From contig PLES01000074.1 in NCBI GenBank assembly GCA_003137075.1, positions 545-52,032 on the forward strand: a stretch of DNA of 51,488 nucleotides, in the 5' to 3' direction. The DNA comes from Solirubrobacterales bacterium (GTDB lineage Bacteria; Actinomycetota; Thermoleophilia; Solirubrobacterales; Solirubrobacteraceae). The stretch's first letter is position 1. Every line of letters starts with the position of its first letter. The notes beneath the pieces are model-generated. The model was not told the DNA's origin and did not search any database. It saw nothing but the letters and a program-made list of their open reading frames with translations. Shown piece after piece: positions 45,544 through 51,488 of this stretch. The position numbers and the translations under genes are program-made.

Positions 45544-46095
45544 GTGTCGGCAACAATTGACAACGGGGTCAACGTCCAGGCGCTGCTTGACGCGCGCGGG
45601 GTGCTGGCAGGCGCACCGGATGCGGCACAGTTCACCTGGAGGGCGTCTTCGTCGTGGCAGCGCGGTGTTCACAGCACCACGACGATCGAGAACTTCTTCG
45701 GGCTCGGCGAGGAGCAGAGCCACAAGACGCGCACGGTCTTCGACGCCGACCATCCGGCGGTGTTCGCGGCTGAGGACAACGGCATCACGCCGATCGAGTA
45801 CCTGCTGGTCGGGCTCGCCAGCTGCCTCACGGCCGGCGTCGCCTCGGTCGCCCAGAACCGCGGCATCCAGCTGCGTTCGGTGGAGTCGACGGTTGAGGGC
45901 AACCACGACATCCGCGGCATCCTCGGCGTCGACAGCGACGTGCGTAACGGGTTCAACGACATCAAGATCACCTTCAACATCGATGCGGATGCGACCCAGC
46001 AGGAGATAGAGGCGCTCGTGGCCCAGTCCCAGAAGCGCTCGGCGGTATTCGACGCGCTGACCAACCCGACCGACGTAACCGTCGTCGTCGCCTGA
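45544..46095 (+). CDS. OsmC family protein with a single cysteine
   Basis: A 183-residue OsmC-fold protein. The central helix with the first cysteine is YLLVGLASCLTAGVASVAQNRGI (Cys ~98). The second, resolving cysteine of Ohr/OsmC peroxidases is replaced: the usual C-P-x region reads KRSAVFDALTNPTDVTV. It is therefore probably not a classic thiol peroxidase and resembles the YhfA-like branch of unknown role. The GTG at 45544 follows GGGAGGT. It is divergent from metX, and the flavin monooxygenase starts about 10 bases after its stop. The pairing suggests a redox or sulfur-related function. Confidence 0.86.
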   Translation: MSATIDNGVNVQALLDARGVLAGAPDAAQFTWRASSSWQRGVHSTTTIENFFGLGEEQSHKTRTVFDADHPAVFAAEDNGITPIEYLLVGLASCLTAGVASVAQNRGIQLRSVESTVEGNHDIRGILGVDSDVRNGFNDIKITFNIDADATQQEIEALVAQSQKRSAVFDALTNPTDVTVVVA

Positions 46096-46105
46096 GGCTC
46101 AAGCG

Positions 46106-47341
46106 ATCGACCAGACCACCGCGGTAGTCATCGGCGCGGGCCACGCCGGCCTGGCCGCGAGCTACTTCCTCAGTCAGCGGTCGATCGATCACGTCGTCCT
46201 CGAGCGCGGTGAGGTCGCGAACTCCTGGAAGCGCGAGCGTTGGGAGTCGCTGCGGCTGCTGACACCGAACTGGCAGAGCCGGCTTCCGGGCCTTCCGTAC
46301 GAAGGCCCGGATCCCGACGGCTACATGTCGGCGGCTGAGGTGGCCGAGATGATCGGTCGCTTCGCCTCGAGCTTCGGTGCGCCTGTTCGCAGCGGCGTCA
46401 CCGTGACGTCGCTGCAGGCTGCTGAGGGCGGCTACGCCGTGGTCAGCGACCAGGGCGAGATCCGTGCGCGCGCGGTGGTGATCGCCAGCGGCGCCTGCAA
46501 CCGGCCGACGGTCCCGCCGATCGCGGCAGCGATAACGGCGCAGATAGCGCAGTTCACGCCTTTCAGTTACCGCAATCCAGATGACCTACCCGAGGGCGGC
46601 GTGCTGGTGGTCGGGGCGTCTGCCACCGGCGTGCAGCTGGCCGCGGAGCTGCAGAGATCCGGCCGGTCGGTGCTGCTTTCGGTTGGCGAACACACGCGAC
46701 TGCCGCGCACCTACCGCGGCCGTGACGTGCTCTGGTGGATGCATGAAGCGGGCATCTGGGAGCAGCGCTACGACGAGGTTGAGGACCTCACACGCGCCCG
46801 CCGCCTGCCCTCACCGCAGCTGGTCGGAACACCCGAGCGGCTGACGCTCGACCTCAACGCCCTGACTGGGCTGGGCGTTGAGCTGACCGGCCGGGCCGCG
46901 GCTGTACGCGACGACCGACTGCTCTTCTCCGGCGGTCTGCGCAACGTGCTCGCGCTCGCCGATCTGAAGCTCGAGCGGCTGCTCGACACCTTTGACGAGT
47001 GGGCGCGAGTCCAGGGACGCGAGCATGAGGTCGGGGCGGTTGAGCGCTTTGCGCCGACCGTGCTGCCCGGTCCGAGCCGCCTGCACGTCGACCTCGGCGG
47101 CGGTGAGATCCAGTCGATCCTCTGGGCGACCGGCTTCCAGCCCGACTACCAGTGGCTCGATCTGCCGGTGCTCGATCAGAAGGGCCGGCTACGCCACGAC
47201 GGAGGCGTTGTCGACGGCGCCGGTCTCTACGCGCTCGGGCTGCCGGTGCTGAGGCGCCGCAAGTCGACCTTCATCCACGGGATCGAGGACGACGCGCGCG
47301 AAGTGGTCGAGCATCTCGCGGGCTTTCTCGGTTCGAGCTAG
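46106..47341 (+). CDS. flavin-dependent monooxygenase/NAD(P)-binding oxidoreductase, non-canonical start
   Basis: A ~411-residue protein of the flavin-containing monooxygenase-like family. The FAD Rossmann motif is AVVIGAGHAGLAASYFL, followed by HVVLERGEVANSWKRERWESLRLLTPNW and GPDPDGYM. The second (NADPH) Rossmann motif is GVLVVGASATGVQLAAEL, and the late ATGFQPDYQWL motif is present. The ORF track starts at ATG 46325, which would remove the FAD motif. The open frame begins at 46079, and before 46325 it has no ATG, GTG or TTG. The best start is ATC 46106, 8 bases after TGAGG. Substrate unknown. It follows the OsmC gene and is probably translationally coupled to it. Confidence 0.82.
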   Translation: MDQTTAVVIGAGHAGLAASYFLSQRSIDHVVLERGEVANSWKRERWESLRLLTPNWQSRLPGLPYEGPDPDGYMSAAEVAEMIGRFASSFGAPVRSGVTVTSLQAAEGGYAVVSDQGEIRARAVVIASGACNRPTVPPIAAAITAQIAQFTPFSYRNPDDLPEGGVLVVGASATGVQLAAELQRSGRSVLLSVGEHTRLPRTYRGRDVLWWMHEAGIWEQRYDEVEDLTRARRLPSPQLVGTPERLTLDLNALTGLGVELTGRAAAVRDDRLLFSGGLRNVLALADLKLERLLDTFDEWARVQGREHEVGAVERFAPTVLPGPSRLHVDLGGGEIQSILWATGFQPDYQWLDLPVLDQKGRLRHDGGVVDGAGLYALGLPVLRRRKSTFIHGIEDDAREVVEHLAGFLGSS

Positions 47342-47468: not shown

Positions 47469-48005
47469 ATGTTGAACGTCGTATTCAGAAGCAAGCTTTA
47501 CCGAACGGTTGCCTTCAGGCGTATGCCCATAGTCGCGCTCGCCGCCACGGTGGTTGTGGCAGCGGGCGCCGCGTCCGCCGGGGCCGCAGGCCCGAAGCGC
47601 GAGACGCTGCGCTTCTACCAGGTCGGTGGCCAGGCCCAGTTCTACAACGCGGCCGGCAAGAAGATCGATCTGAACCCGCCGGCGACGCTGCCAAAGCCGG
47701 GCGACAGCTTCGATGAGGTCGACGTGGACTATCCCGGCACGCCTAAACACCACGCGCTGCACTGGACTGCAACCGACCACCTGACGTGCACGTTCACCGA
47801 TCACAACACGGGTTTGTGTAACTCCCAGATCGCGATCGGCGGCTCATTGTTGCTGAGCAACAACTTCAGGATGAAGTTCGGACCGTCCAATGCGCCGGTA
47901 CCGATCAACGAAGCCACGGGCGTTTTCAGTGGCATGCACGGCGCTTTGACCGACGAGGACCTGCCGAAGTCAAACAACGCGACCTTGGTGATTCACCTGT
48001 CGTAG
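47469..48005 (+). CDS. secreted allene-oxide-cyclase/dirigent-like barrel protein
   Basis: A 178-residue exported protein. The signal peptide is FRRMPIVALAATVVVAAGAASAGAA (residues ~13-38) with a likely cut after an Ala-x-Ala. The mature part contains alternating strands with GDSFDEVDVDY, two cysteines (LTCTFTDHNTGLCNSQ) that could form a disulfide, and INEATGVFSGMHGALTDEDLP. The order recalls actinobacterial allene-oxide-cyclase/dirigent barrel proteins. ATG 47469 is chosen because AAGGGGG lies 5 bases upstream; ATG 47451 is possible. No enzyme function is claimed. It ends before a strong hairpin shared with the convergent response regulator. Confidence 0.7.
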   Translation: MLNVVFRSKLYRTVAFRRMPIVALAATVVVAAGAASAGAAGPKRETLRFYQVGGQAQFYNAAGKKIDLNPPATLPKPGDSFDEVDVDYPGTPKHHALHWTATDHLTCTFTDHNTGLCNSQIAIGGSLLLSNNFRMKFGPSNAPVPINEATGVFSGMHGALTDEDLPKSNNATLVIHLS

Positions 48006-48013
48006 CGATCGCG

Positions 48014-48058
48014 CGGACCTGCTCGCGTCTGGCCGCGGTCAGCGGCCGAGCAGGTCCG
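48014..48058. terminator. two-part hairpin between convergent genes, embedding a stop codon
   Basis: An 11-bp outer stem (CGGACCTGCTC/GAGCAGGTCCG) and a 6-bp inner stem GGCCGC/GCGGCC, with a 6-base bulge on one side. The loop GGTCA contains the response regulator's stop codon, and the right arm is inside its coding end. It can end transcription from the secreted-protein gene. No T-tract is present. Confidence 0.5.
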
Positions 48059-48728
48059 GCGTGACGAATCCGCACTCGTAGGCCAAGACCACCGCCTGCA
48101 CCCGATCACGCAATTCGAGCTTCGTAAGGACCCGTGCCACATGGCTCTTCACCGTCGACTCCTCAATCACCAGGTCCGCCGCGATTTCGGCGTTGGAACG
48201 CCCACGCGCGATCAGACGCAGAACATCAAGTTCCCGGGCGGTCAGCTCCTTGAGCCGGTCGGGCGTGGTTTCACTCGACCCGGCGGCGGCCGCGAAACGC
48301 AGGATCATGCGCCGCGTCACCGCCGGGTCGATCAGCGCGTTGCCGGCGGCGACGTTACGGATCGCCCAACAGAGCTGCTCCGGCGGCGTGTCCTTGAGCA
48401 GGAAGCCACTGGCTCCGGCGCGCAGGCCTTCAAACACGTACTCATCCGTGTCGAAGGTGGTCAGCAGAATCACACGGCTGTTGGTCTCGGCCAGGATCCG
48501 GCGCGACGCGGTAAGCCCGTCCATCGCCGGCATGCGGATGTCGAGCAGGACCACATCCGGGGCGCGCTTGCGCGCGAGATCAAGTGCTTGCAGACCGTCC
48601 TGCGCCTCGCCCACGACCCGCATGTCGGGTTCGCCGTTGACGATCAGCGCGAGGCCCGCACGGACCAGCTGCTGGTCGTCCGCGACCAGCAGCGTGATCT
48701 CAGCTTTTGCGGGTGTTTCGGATTCCAC
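48039..48728 (-). CDS. NarL/FixJ-type response regulator
   Basis: A 229-residue two-component regulator. The receiver domain shows the acidic pair in LLVADDQQLVRAGL (residues ~13-26), the phospho-acceptor Asp in DVVLLDIRMPAMDG (~60), the switch Thr in VILLTTFDTDEY and the Lys in GFLLKDTPPEQL. After a linker comes the LuxR-type HTH LTARELDVLRLIARGRSNAEIAADLVIEESTVKSHVARVLTKL (~165-207). GTG 48728 is the start, judged by where family-like sequence begins. It is divergent from the kinase pair across about 60 bases and is their obvious partner. Targets are unknown. Confidence 0.93.
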   Translation of the reverse strand: MESETPAKAEITLLVADDQQLVRAGLALIVNGEPDMRVVGEAQDGLQALDLARKRAPDVVLLDIRMPAMDGLTASRRILAETNSRVILLTTFDTDEYVFEGLRAGASGFLLKDTPPEQLCWAIRNVAAGNALIDPAVTRRMILRFAAAAGSSETTPDRLKELTARELDVLRLIARGRSNAEIAADLVIEESTVKSHVARVLTKLELRDRVQAVVLAYECGFVTPDLLGR

Positions 48729-48736
48729 GCGGTTAC

Positions 48737-48765
48737 TTGCGATGAGGGTCAGCAGGCTAGACAAT
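48737..48765 (+). promoter_or_regulatory. possible promoter of the kinase operon
   Basis: TTGCGA (48737-48742), 17 bases, then GACAAT (48760-48765). Each hexamer matches the sigma-A consensus in four of six positions. It would start transcription about 15 bases before the ATG at 48788, leaving room for the AAAGGGGA ribosome-binding site. Confidence 0.3.
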
Positions 48766-48787
48766 TCCAAACAGAAAGGGGACTCCA

Positions 48788-49939
48788 ATGCCTGTAAAGG
48801 TGAAGGAGTGGGTATGGGGCGCACCGCTGGGTCAGCGGGCGTTGACTCGGTTGGACACGCTTCTGGCGTTGCTGGTGAGTGTCGCGGCGGTCATCGCCGT
48901 CAGCGGGAACGGAAATCACAGCGACCCGAAGGGCGGGGTGTTCGCCTGCGTGGCGGTGCTGTTGATGACGGTGCCCGTTGCCTGGCGCCGCGCACATCCG
49001 CTCGGAGCTGTCGCCACGATGGCGGTCGGTGCATTGTTCAACGCGATCGTGATCGGCACGTTCGTGCGCTGCGGCGGCGCGCTGCCGGCGTTGATCCTGG
49101 TCACGTACTCGGTCGGTGCGCGGCTGCAGCTGCGGCCGGCCGTTGCCGGAGCTGTGCTGACGGTCGTCGCGGTCGTGGCACAGGCGCATAGCGATCCGCA
49201 ACTCAAGGGCTTCTCGGTCGGAGGCAGCGTCTTCCTGCTGGCAATGTGGGGCGTTGGGCGACTCGTGCGCTCACGTGAGGGCATGGTCGCGGTGCTGCGC
49301 TCACGGACCGACGCGCTGCATGAGCAGCGCGACCGCACGGCGAAGCTGGCGGTCGAGGCCGACCGTGCGCGCGTGGCCGAGAGTCTCGACGGTTTGGTCG
49401 GTGAGCGGATCGGCAAGCTCGCAGCGCAAGCCGCTGTTGCCAGCGCAGCGATTGACAGTGAACCGGAAGCCGCGCGCGAGTCCCTGGCAGCGATCGAGCA
49501 GGAGGGACGCCGGACGCTGACCGACATGCGTCAGCTCGTCGGCGCTCTCTACGAGACCGCGGACGGTCCGCAGCCATCACTGAAGGATCTGGACGGGTTT
49601 CTGCGGCGCGCACTCGCGAATCCGGCGCAGCTGACGGTCGACGGTGATCGCTGCTCGCTTCCCGCCGGCGTCGAGCTTTCGGCCTTCCGGATCGTCGAGC
49701 GGTTGCTTGAGCCGTTGGAGGACCGCGCCGATGAGCGCGTGCAGGTGACTCTGCGCTACGAGCCCGATGCGCTGGAGGTGGCGGTGCGAGGCCGGGTCAG
49801 AACCGGCTGCGACCTGCAGACGACGCTGGTCACCGCGCGTGAGTGGGTCTCGCTGCACGCTGGAACGCTCGAGTCTCAGCTGCGCTCGGGTGTCTCGCAG
49901 ACCAAGGTGCGGTTACCGCTGGTAACCGCGCATGCATGA
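48788..49939 (+). CDS. degenerate (pseudo) sensor histidine kinase
   Basis: A 383-residue membrane protein built like a NarX/DesK-type kinase. About five to six transmembrane helices fill residues 20-160, followed by a coiled-coil linker and a dimerisation helix. The phospho-accepting region that should read R-x-A-R-x-L-H-D is ADRARVAESLDGLVGE, with Asp201 in place of His. In the ATPase domain the N-box is replaced by VERLLEPLEDRADER, and no G-box is visible. It should be unable to phosphorylate itself. ATG 48788 follows AAAGGGGA. It overlaps the intact kinase by 8 bases. Likely role: sensory partner in a heteromeric kinase or modulator of signalling. Confidence 0.82.
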   Translation: MPVKVKEWVWGAPLGQRALTRLDTLLALLVSVAAVIAVSGNGNHSDPKGGVFACVAVLLMTVPVAWRRAHPLGAVATMAVGALFNAIVIGTFVRCGGALPALILVTYSVGARLQLRPAVAGAVLTVVAVVAQAHSDPQLKGFSVGGSVFLLAMWGVGRLVRSREGMVAVLRSRTDALHEQRDRTAKLAVEADRARVAESLDGLVGERIGKLAAQAAVASAAIDSEPEAARESLAAIEQEGRRTLTDMRQLVGALYETADGPQPSLKDLDGFLRRALANPAQLTVDGDRCSLPAGVELSAFRIVERLLEPLEDRADERVQVTLRYEPDALEVAVRGRVRTGCDLQTTLVTAREWVSLHAGTLESQLRSGVSQTKVRLPLVTAHA

Positions 49940-51122
49940 ACCGGTGAAACGACTGGCCGACATGGCCAGTCGTTGGTTTGACCCGGCGGCGGCGCTGGTG
50001 ATCGTTGGCTTCTGCCTGGTTCAGCTCATCAGCGCGCCGCCGCGCGGCGCCGGACTGACCGCGGGGATCGCGGCGCTGACTGCGCTCGCGTGCATCGGGG
50101 TGTGGGTCCGCCGCCGCTACCCGCGCGCTGTGACGTTTGTCTTCGCGCTGGCGCTATTCGTTCCTGGAGTCTTGATCGGCGCGCGTTGGCAGAACGGGCT
50201 GCCGGCCACGCTGCTGCTCGCGTTCGTGATCATGGCTTACACCGCCGGGGCGGAACTCGACTGGAGCTGGTCGCTGGCAGGGCTGGTCGCCTTGGCGGTC
50301 GCAAACACGACCGGAGATCTCACGGGCGACCTCGTGTCAGTGGTCGTCTTCACCGTGCCGCTGTGGACCGCCGGCAGAGTAGTGCGCTCACGCAACAAGG
50401 TCGCCGCACAACTCGACGCCCGCGCGCAGGAGCTCGAGTTGGAGCAGGAGGCCTACGTGCGTGAGGCCGTGCGGTTTGAGCGCGCGCGCATCGCCCGTGA
50501 CCTGCATGACATCGTCGCGCACAACCTCAGCATGATCGTCGTCCAGGCCGGCGCCGGAAGGCGCGCAATTGACTCGAGCCCCGAGACGGCAACGCAGTCT
50601 CTGGCTCACATATCGGCCGGTGCCCGCCAGGCCGAGCTCGAGATCGAATCGCTGATGGGCCTTGTCGCCCGGCAGGACCTGAACGGCGACAGCCCCGGGC
50701 TACAGATGCTCGACGAGCTGGTTCAGCGTGCAGCTGCGACCGGCCTGTCGGTCACCTATCGCCTCAACGGAGCCCACGACGCGGTACCGCCGGAGCTCGC
50801 GCAAGCCGCCTATCACGTCACCCAGGAGGGCATCACCAACGCGCTCAAGCACGCGCCTGGCGCAGCGATCACGGTCGCGGTCGACGCCAGTGCACGGAGC
50901 TTGAAGGTCCTCGTAGAGAACGGGCCTACCGCCGATCCTGATCGCTGTGATGCCGGATTACGGGACACGGGCGGGGGGTACGGGATCGCTGGTTTGCGGC
51001 GCCGACTCGAAGCGATCGGTGGATTGCTGAACGCCGGCCCGAGTGCTGGTGGGGGATGGCGAATCGAGGCAGACCTACCTCGATTCGGTTTCCCGGCGCA
51101 GCCGGGAAGTGCCGTCCGGTGA
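49932..51122 (+). CDS. sensor histidine kinase (NarX/DesK-like)
   Basis: A 396-residue membrane histidine kinase. N-terminal helices span residues ~18-150 (ALVIVGFCLVQLI, GIAALTALACIGVW, AVTFVFALALFVPGVLI, LLLAFVIMAYTAG, VSVVVFTVPLWTAG). The HisKA_3 motif RFERARIARDLHDIVAHNLSMIVVQAG carries the phospho-His (His192). The ATPase domain has the N-box QEGITNALKHAPG and the G-box GGGYGIAGLRRRLEAIGG. It therefore looks fully active and should phosphorylate the divergent NarL-type regulator. Its start overlaps the pseudokinase gene, and its stop overlaps the GNAT gene by GTGA. The signal is unknown; there is no large external domain. Confidence 0.93.
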   Translation: MHEPVKRLADMASRWFDPAAALVIVGFCLVQLISAPPRGAGLTAGIAALTALACIGVWVRRRYPRAVTFVFALALFVPGVLIGARWQNGLPATLLLAFVIMAYTAGAELDWSWSLAGLVALAVANTTGDLTGDLVSVVVFTVPLWTAGRVVRSRNKVAAQLDARAQELELEQEAYVREAVRFERARIARDLHDIVAHNLSMIVVQAGAGRRAIDSSPETATQSLAHISAGARQAELEIESLMGLVARQDLNGDSPGLQMLDELVQRAAATGLSVTYRLNGAHDAVPPELAQAAYHVTQEGITNALKHAPGAAITVAVDASARSLKVLVENGPTADPDRCDAGLRDTGGGYGIAGLRRRLEAIGGLLNAGPSAGGGWRIEADLPRFGFPAQPGSAVR

Positions 51123-51488
51123 GTAGCGGCGTCGTGATCCGCCGCGGAGTTGAGCGCGACGCGGTGGCGTTGCTGTCGATGTGGGATCGGGCGGTCGCGT
51201 GGCTGGTCGCGCGCGGGCAGACGATGCAGTGGGGTACCGAGCCTGTCTCAGCGCGGCCTGGCTCCCACGAGCGGGCGCTCGCGTGGGCGACAAGCTCAGA
51301 CCTTCGCGTCGCTGAGATTGACGGGCAGGCGGTCGGAATCAGCCTCATAGGCGACACCCCTCCAAGCCACGTGCCGGCGACCGCGTTGCCCGAGAGCTAC
51401 CTGCACTTCCTGCTCACGGATCGAGACCACGCCGGCAAGGGCATCGGCACCGATCTGGTCCGCCGCGCGGTCGCTGACGCCCGCGAGG
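51119..51488 (+). CDS. GNAT N-acetyltransferase, N-terminal part (cut by window edge)
   Basis: The first 123 codons of a GNAT-family acetyltransferase. The N-terminal strand and helix VVIRRGVERDAVALLSMWDRAVAWLVARGQ are followed by RVAEIDGQAVGISLIGD. The acetyl-CoA pyrophosphate loop is HFLLTDRDHAGKGIGTDLVRRAV (the R/Q-x-x-G-x-G/A-type motif). The GTG at 51119 overlaps the kinase stop as GTGA, so it is probably cotranslated with the two-component genes. It was not in the ORF track in this frame because it runs off the edge. Substrate is unknown. Confidence 0.8.
   Translation, partial: MSSGVVIRRGVERDAVALLSMWDRAVAWLVARGQTMQWGTEPVSARPGSHERALAWATSSDLRVAEIDGQAVGISLIGDTPPSHVPATALPESYLHFLLTDRDHAGKGIGTDLVRRAVADARE

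What the first reader, a model, noticed from the sequence alone, without database searches (positions are those of the whole stretch)
48788..51122. Tandem pseudokinase and active histidine kinase with divergent regulator
Two homologous membrane kinases overlap by 8 bases. The first has Asp instead of the phospho-His and lacks a normal N-box and G-box; the second has all motifs. Retained length and an intact frame argue against simple decay. A heteromeric sensor, in which the dead subunit gives signal input or restrains the active one, is an inference.
Basis: partly seen in the sequence, partly recalled or inferred. Interest (0 to 1): 0.6.

Follow-up and report, generated by a model that had tools for sequence, protein, structure and literature searches.

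The report
Dead and live sensor-kinase pair
A soil-type actinobacterium carries, back to back, a membrane sensor kinase that has lost all its catalytic parts and a normal one, and the same mismatched pair is kept together in at least ten related genomes, which suggests the dead protein is a working, probably signal-sensing, half of a two-part sensor.

Summary
P0001 (48788-49939) is a DUF7134-HisKA_3 protein with Asp201 in place of the phospho-His and no N-, G1- or G2-box. P0002 (49932-51122, 8-base overlap) is a normal HisKA_3 kinase, apart from Asn for Asp in the G1 box. A NarL-type regulator is divergent.

The pseudokinase is not decaying. I found 12 loci with the same H->D type, from Solirubrobacteraceae and other Thermoleophilia to Paractinoplanes. 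All have pseudokinase first, intact kinase second and a regulator beside them. Pseudokinase and kinase distances correlate at 0.91. Among 399 class genomes the strongest hits to each were the same 8 loci. Pseudokinase dN/dS (about 0.4-0.5) resembles the kinase's.

Its membrane part is the better conserved one and carries an Arg-Cys (R94-C95) invariant in D-type pseudokinases (11/11), with no such preference in 96 active kinases. Other asymmetric pairs are common in the same order, eight fused in one chain; 34 of 35 tandem pairs examined are asymmetric (biased sample).

Best reading: a heteromeric sensor with the pseudokinase as input/allosteric subunit. It works like RocA-CovS or FasBC but is an unrelated, apparently undescribed family. 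Heterodimerisation itself is inferred, not shown.

The parts
48039..48728 (-). NarL-type response regulator P0003 (REC plus LuxR/GerE); the ORF stays open to 48824, the likely start is GTG at 48728
   Evidence: Response_reg 93.5 bits and GerE 66.9 bits; orthologous regulators next to all other D-type pairs
48729..48787 (.). 59-base divergent intergenic region, probably a shared promoter region
   Evidence: Sequence; no sigma-70-type consensus found
48788..49939 (+). Pseudo-histidine kinase P0001, 383 aa (DUF7134 membrane domain, degenerate DHp, degenerate CA)
   Evidence: orthologues in 11 further loci
48848..49258 (+). Membrane sensor part of P0001 (six predicted helices, residues 21-157)
   Evidence: AlphaFold2 model; DUF7134 match 18-164
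49067..49072 (+). Arg94-Cys95, invariant in D-type pseudokinases, in a predicted outward loop
   Evidence: R and C in 11 of 11 D-type pseudokinases, no such preference in 96 active kinases
49388..49390 (+). Asp201 codon at the phospho-His position
49571..49936 (+). Degenerate CA domain: no N-box, no G1/G2 box, ATP lid reduced
   Evidence: No HATPase_c match; motif table; model
49932..49939 (+). 8-base overlap of the two genes (likely translational coupling)
   Evidence: similar spacing of start and stop in other loci
49932..51122 (+). Active histidine kinase P0002, 396 aa
   Evidence: HisKA_3 and HATPase_c over cut-off
50505..50507 (+). Phospho-acceptor His192 codon of P0002
   Evidence: Alignment
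50838..50840 (+). N-box Asn303 codon of P0002
   Evidence: Alignment
50967..50981 (+). G2 box GGGYG of P0002
   Evidence: Alignment

Best explanation
The three genes form one sensory module. P0001 and P0002 are co-translated and assemble in the membrane through their signalling helices and DHp bundles, most likely as a heterodimer. P0001 has no phospho-acceptor and no ATP site, so it does no chemistry. It acts as the input/allosteric subunit: its conserved membrane region, with an Arg-Cys in a predicted outward loop, perceives the signal and changes the helical bundle shared with P0002. P0002 is the only enzyme: it autophosphorylates His192 and passes the phosphate to the NarL-type regulator P0003. 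Because P0001 has neither His nor an ATP site, a productive 1:1 heterodimer requires P0002 to phosphorylate itself in cis; otherwise P0001 would act as a switchable brake on P0002. Shown here: catalytic residues absent, conserved pair, co-inheritance, constraint, distinctive conserved membrane motif. Inferred: physical heterodimer, direction of the effect, nature of the signal.
For: 12 loci with the same H->D pseudokinase directly upstream of an intact kinase and beside an orthologous regulator. Same 8 loci are the top hits for pseudokinase and partner profiles in 399 class genomes. Parallel clades; distance correlation 0.91 against 0.53 and 0.62 with the regulator. dN/dS like the partner's. 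Natural single-chain fusions of asymmetric pairs, 8 loci. Pseudokinase membrane region better conserved than the kinase's (34% with 5 invariant columns; 26% with none), with R94-C95 invariant. One D-type pseudokinase (L278) has only membrane part and DHp, so the CA domain is dispensable there. DesK-like DHp fold predicted. Precedents for pseudokinase-kinase interaction: RocA-CovS (PMC7028121), FasB-FasC (PMC12675982).
Against: No complex was modelled or measured. Co-inheritance and fusion show functional linkage, not necessarily a mixed DHp dimer. No signal is known. The module is patchy: not found in the other genomes of the same genus that were searched. Conservation of the pseudokinase CA region in most loci suggests it does something beyond sensing. 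The better conservation of the pseudokinase membrane part depends partly on start-codon choice in three of the kinases.
Confidence: 0.62

Rival explanations
1. P0001 is a brake. The mixed dimer is inactive because P0002 autophosphorylates in trans, or the Asp201 subunit holds P0002 in a phosphatase-like state; signal perceived by P0001 releases P0002 to form active homodimers.
For: P0001 lacks both acceptor and ATP site, so a trans-acting kinase would be silenced by it. In the DesK family an acidic substitution of the acceptor (H188E) is used as a phosphomimetic (PMC5231405), so Asp201 could bias the bundle.
Against: Pairs in the same order that keep the His but lose the ATP site (L053, L062, L243-L246) are not obviously built as brakes; single-chain fusions would leave P0002-like halves only other fusion chains to pair with.
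Confidence: 0.2
2. Two separate homodimers. P0002 is an ordinary kinase; P0001 homodimerises and modulates the pathway by another route, for example by binding the regulator as a decoy or titrating a ligand or lipid, without a mixed kinase dimer.
For: Nothing here proves a physical dimer; BIN45 has two pseudokinases for one kinase (L126).
Against: Tight pair-specific co-evolution (0.91), overlapping or abutting genes and fusions point to fixed stoichiometry.
Confidence: 0.13
3. Decay: a tandem duplicate on its way to becoming a pseudogene.
For: Loss of every catalytic motif; absence from the other genomes searched in the same genus.
Against: Conserved across genera, families and at least two classes, with shared replacement motifs and invariant residues, dN/dS similar to the active partner, and open frames throughout, including complete genomes.
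Confidence: 0.02

Closest known systems
RocA-CovS of group A Streptococcus (PMC7028121)
   Same: Six-helix membrane pseudokinase whose acceptor His and CA domain are dispensable; it binds and modulates an active membrane kinase
   Different: RocA is an accessory to a separate TCS and keeps a His; different sequence family. Here the pair is encoded together, and the D-type has no His
FasB-FasC-FasA of group A Streptococcus (PMC12675982)
   Same: Two kinase-like genes with one regulator; two-hybrid data show a heterodimer of a kinase and a proposed pseudokinase
   Different: FasC supplies the phospho-acceptor His246; here the D-type pseudokinase has no acceptor. Regulator type and sequence family differ
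ChrS pseudokinase with HrrS, Corynebacterium glutamicum (PMC9491836)
   Same: A kinase made inactive boosts signalling through a paralogous kinase; native versions heterodimerise by two-hybrid; actinobacterial
   Different: Arose in laboratory evolution by a frameshift; genes not an overlapping tandem pair; the truncated form showed no interaction in two-hybrid
DivL-CckA of Caulobacter (cited in PMC9491836 and PMC12189002)
   Same: Naturally conserved pseudo-histidine kinase that controls an active kinase
   Different: Different domain make-up, unlinked genes, phosphorelay output; Tyr at the acceptor position (own knowledge)
DesK-DesR of Bacillus subtilis
   Same: Closest solved fold for both proteins and closest PDB sequences; polytopic membrane kinase
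   Different: A single active kinase working with its own copies; no pseudokinase partner

Membership tests
HisKA_3 (DesK-type) histidine kinase: P0002 | HisKA_3 DHp domain with phospho-His | tested here: met
   53.1 bits against a cut-off of 24; LHDIV
HisKA_3 (DesK-type) histidine kinase: P0002 | HATPase_c with N, G1 and G2 boxes | tested here: met
   HATPase_c 29.5 bits against 26.4; N and G2 boxes intact, G1 Asp is Asn
HisKA_3 (DesK-type) histidine kinase: P0001 | HisKA_3 domain by sequence | tested here: met
   32 bits against a cut-off of 24
HisKA_3 (DesK-type) histidine kinase: P0001 | Phospho-acceptor His | tested here: not met
   Asp201; Asp in all D-type orthologues
HisKA_3 (DesK-type) histidine kinase: P0001 | ATP-binding CA domain | tested here: not met
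   No HATPase_c match, no N/G boxes, lid reduced
NarL-type response regulator: P0003 | REC plus LuxR/GerE HTH | tested here: met
   93.5 and 66.9 bits
Pseudokinase-kinase heterodimer (RocA-CovS / FasBC-like mechanism) | Catalytically dead kinase homologue genetically tied to an active kinase | tested here: met
   12 loci, same top 8 loci for both profiles
Pseudokinase-kinase heterodimer (RocA-CovS / FasBC-like mechanism) | Direct physical interaction | not testable with these tools
   Only single chains could be predicted
FasBC-type transphosphorylated pair | Pseudokinase supplies the phospho-acceptor His | tested here: not met
   D-type has no His; other pairs such as L053 and L062 do keep it

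The most novel reading that the evidence does not exclude
Thermoleophilia use a standing architecture of obligate asymmetric histidine kinases, split or fused. One paralogue is specialised for sensing (in the D-type through an outward Arg-Cys site) and the other for catalysis. In most D-type systems the regulator also carries a degenerate class III cyclase domain, so the module stacks a pseudokinase input, a kinase and a pseudocyclase-bearing transcription factor.
Probability: 0.3. Interest if true: 0.75.

Novelty: new variant of a known kind. Interest (0 to 1): 0.56.

Why it matters
Naturally paired pseudo/active histidine kinases are known from a few isolated cases. A conserved actinobacterial family with H->D, H->N, H->Q, His-kept, CA-less and fused versions side by side lets one ask what a dead subunit needs: acceptor, ATP fold, or only membrane part and DHp. 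It also gives a natural test of cis against trans autophosphorylation, because the acceptor-less pairs can work as 1:1 dimers only in cis. A species with a complete genome (Paraconexibacter antarcticus) carries the pair.

Tried and rejected
Decay: rejected. Assembly frameshift artefact: rejected for the D-type because single-contig genomes carry it; some other pairs (L058, L070, L083) do show frame breaks in draft assemblies and were read only as fragments. Counting origins of pseudokinases: the free tree puts D, N, Q and His-kept types in separate clades, but a single pseudokinase clade is not rejected (p-AU 0.40), so one ancient or several origins stays open. Other conserved neighbours that might reveal the regulon: none besides the regulator matched among window ORFs from about 44 kb on. 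Promoter and terminator scan: nothing. Literature searches for tandem or heterodimeric DesK-type kinases and for Solirubrobacter kinases gave nothing on this family. The split-kinase idea (one subunit donates His, the other ATP) is excluded for the D-type because P0001 has neither. The M. tuberculosis HK1/HK2 system was searched for but gave no usable paper.

Full report
Observation. The two ORFs, the 8-base overlap and the divergent regulator are as described. P0001 matches DUF7134 and HisKA_3 but not HATPase_c; P0002 matches HisKA_3 and HATPase_c. The two are paralogues (1e-24). Aligned with about 80 related kinase ORFs, P0001 has Asp for the acceptor His, no N-box and no G2 box; P0002 is canonical except for Asn in place of the G1 Asp.

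Structure. AlphaFold2 on an alignment of window and the search for related loci sequences gives P0001 a mean pLDDT of 82: six membrane helices, a long signalling helix running into a DHp hairpin, and a reduced CA sheet in which the ATP lid is cut to a few residues. Its best PDB matches are DesK structures, as for P0002 (pLDDT 75). By sequence profile, P0002 relatives match DesK, DevS, DosT and VraS kinase domains; P0001 relatives match credibly only the DHp of DesK.

Conservation of the pair. Searching 60 relatives, then the whole order (232 genomes), then 399 class genomes and a named genome collection gave 12 loci with an H->D pseudokinase. They are the window; MAGs AVDCRST_MAG53, MAG67 (two loci) and MAG79, G112, BIN45 and G151; Paraconexibacter antarcticus; Solirubrobacter soli; G330; and Paractinoplanes tereljensis, which is in another class. 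BIN45 has pseudokinase-kinase-pseudokinase. In all 12 the kinase follows the pseudokinase, with start and stop codons within a few bases of each other in those measured, and an orthologous regulator sits beside them, divergent in 11 and convergent downstream in G151. In the class survey the eight best loci for the pseudokinase profile and for the active-partner profile are the same eight, with a gap to all others; the ninth active hit (G151) is itself the CA-less D-type pair. The class searches scored only the top five candidates per genome, so absence is weaker evidence than presence. An even sample of 397 genomes of the phylum gave a D-type hit in only two, the window's genome and G034. None of the 27 other genomes of the window's genus gave a D-type hit, and none of those in the class survey gave an active-partner hit at that level, so the module is patchy and is gained or lost whole.

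Not decay. Nine aligned D-type pseudokinases have more than 40 invariant columns, including D201. The CA region, though catalytically dead, is as conserved as the DHp (53% and 50% mean identity). NG86 dN/dS is 0.40-0.54 for the four closer pseudokinase pairs and 0.33-0.53 for three kinase pairs; dS is high, so these are rough. The trees of pseudokinases and partners are parallel clades, and their distance correlation of 0.91 exceeds that of either with the regulator (0.53 and 0.62).

Division of labour. Across 11 loci the pseudokinase membrane region is better conserved than the kinase's (34% with 5 invariant columns, 26% with none); start-codon choice may shorten three of the kinases. R94-C95-G96, in the loop between helices 3 and 4, is specific to D-type pseudokinases: R and C in 11 of 11, while the commonest residues at those columns in 96 active kinases are E/Y/D/T and P/G/S/A. 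With Arg/Lys-rich segments at the N-terminus, after helix 2 and after helix 6, this loop is predicted to face outward (inference). That makes the pseudokinase the likelier sensor. The CA-less pseudokinase of G151 is an exception to the motif: its loop reads FDQFRVIV, with Arg but no Cys. Thiol, metal or redox sensing is a guess.

Wider pattern. The order holds other asymmetric pairs: H->N (L050, L058), H->Q (L055/L057, L081, L253, L279 and fused L250), and His kept with a dead or missing CA (L042, L066, L053, L062, L243-L246, L247, L098, L280). Some have the dead partner first, some second. Eight are single chains carrying two units. Of 35 tandem or fused pairs seen, only L252 has two clearly intact kinases; a few are fragmentary in draft assemblies. 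The sample is biased because the query was a pseudokinase. In six well-assembled genomes scanned with the HisKA_3 family, tandem pairs are rare: two among 66 hits, both asymmetric, plus the Paraconexibacter pair whose pseudokinase the family model misses. Whether the pseudokinases arose once or several times is unresolved (p-AU 0.40).

Regulator. In eight of the other D-type loci the regulator has an N-terminal class III cyclase-homology segment before REC-LuxR; Pfam Guanylate_cyc passes its cut-off in the four best tested. The transition-state Asn of the VNxAAR motif is replaced, so it may be a pseudocyclase. The window, L145 and L149 lack it. A survey of actinobacterial LuxR proteins lists CHD+LuxR and REC+LuxR but not all three together in the passages read (PMC3466318).

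Mechanism and known systems. The arrangement works like RocA-CovS (PMC7028121) and FasB-FasC (PMC12675982), where a membrane pseudokinase binds an active kinase, and like the laboratory-evolved ChrS pseudokinase (PMC9491836). It is not a member of those families: different sequence family, constant gene pairing and, for the D-type, no acceptor His. A 1:1 dimer of P0001 and P0002 can autophosphorylate only in cis. If this family phosphorylates in trans, the mixed dimer is inactive and P0001 is a brake. That single experiment separates the two main models.

Noticed in passing
L142:3599-4948, L144:2962-4821, L278:2143-3363, L146:3702-4817 (also L143, L147, L148, L124): Response regulators with an N-terminal class III cyclase-homology domain before REC-LuxR, next to the D-type kinase pairs; the catalytic Asn is replaced, so possibly a nucleotide-binding pseudocyclase.
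   Followed up: partly
L278:262-1032: A D-type pseudokinase of 257 aa with membrane part and DHp but no CA domain at all, overlapping the start of its active partner; its loop lacks the Cys.
   Followed up: partly
L042, L066, L098, L243-L246, L250: Single ORFs of about 736-937 aa carrying two kinase units, one intact and one degenerate.
   Followed up: partly
L126:4409-7939: Triple array pseudokinase-kinase-pseudokinase.
   Followed up: no
window 51119-51488: GNAT acetyltransferase whose start overlaps the stop of P0002; no counterpart found at the other D-type loci.
   Followed up: partly
window 47469-48005: Likely secreted protein of about 178 aa without any Pfam match, convergent with the regulator gene.
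   Followed up: no
window 45544-47341: OsmC-like protein and a flavin oxidoreductase upstream; a redox flavour, but not conserved with the kinase pair.
   Followed up: no
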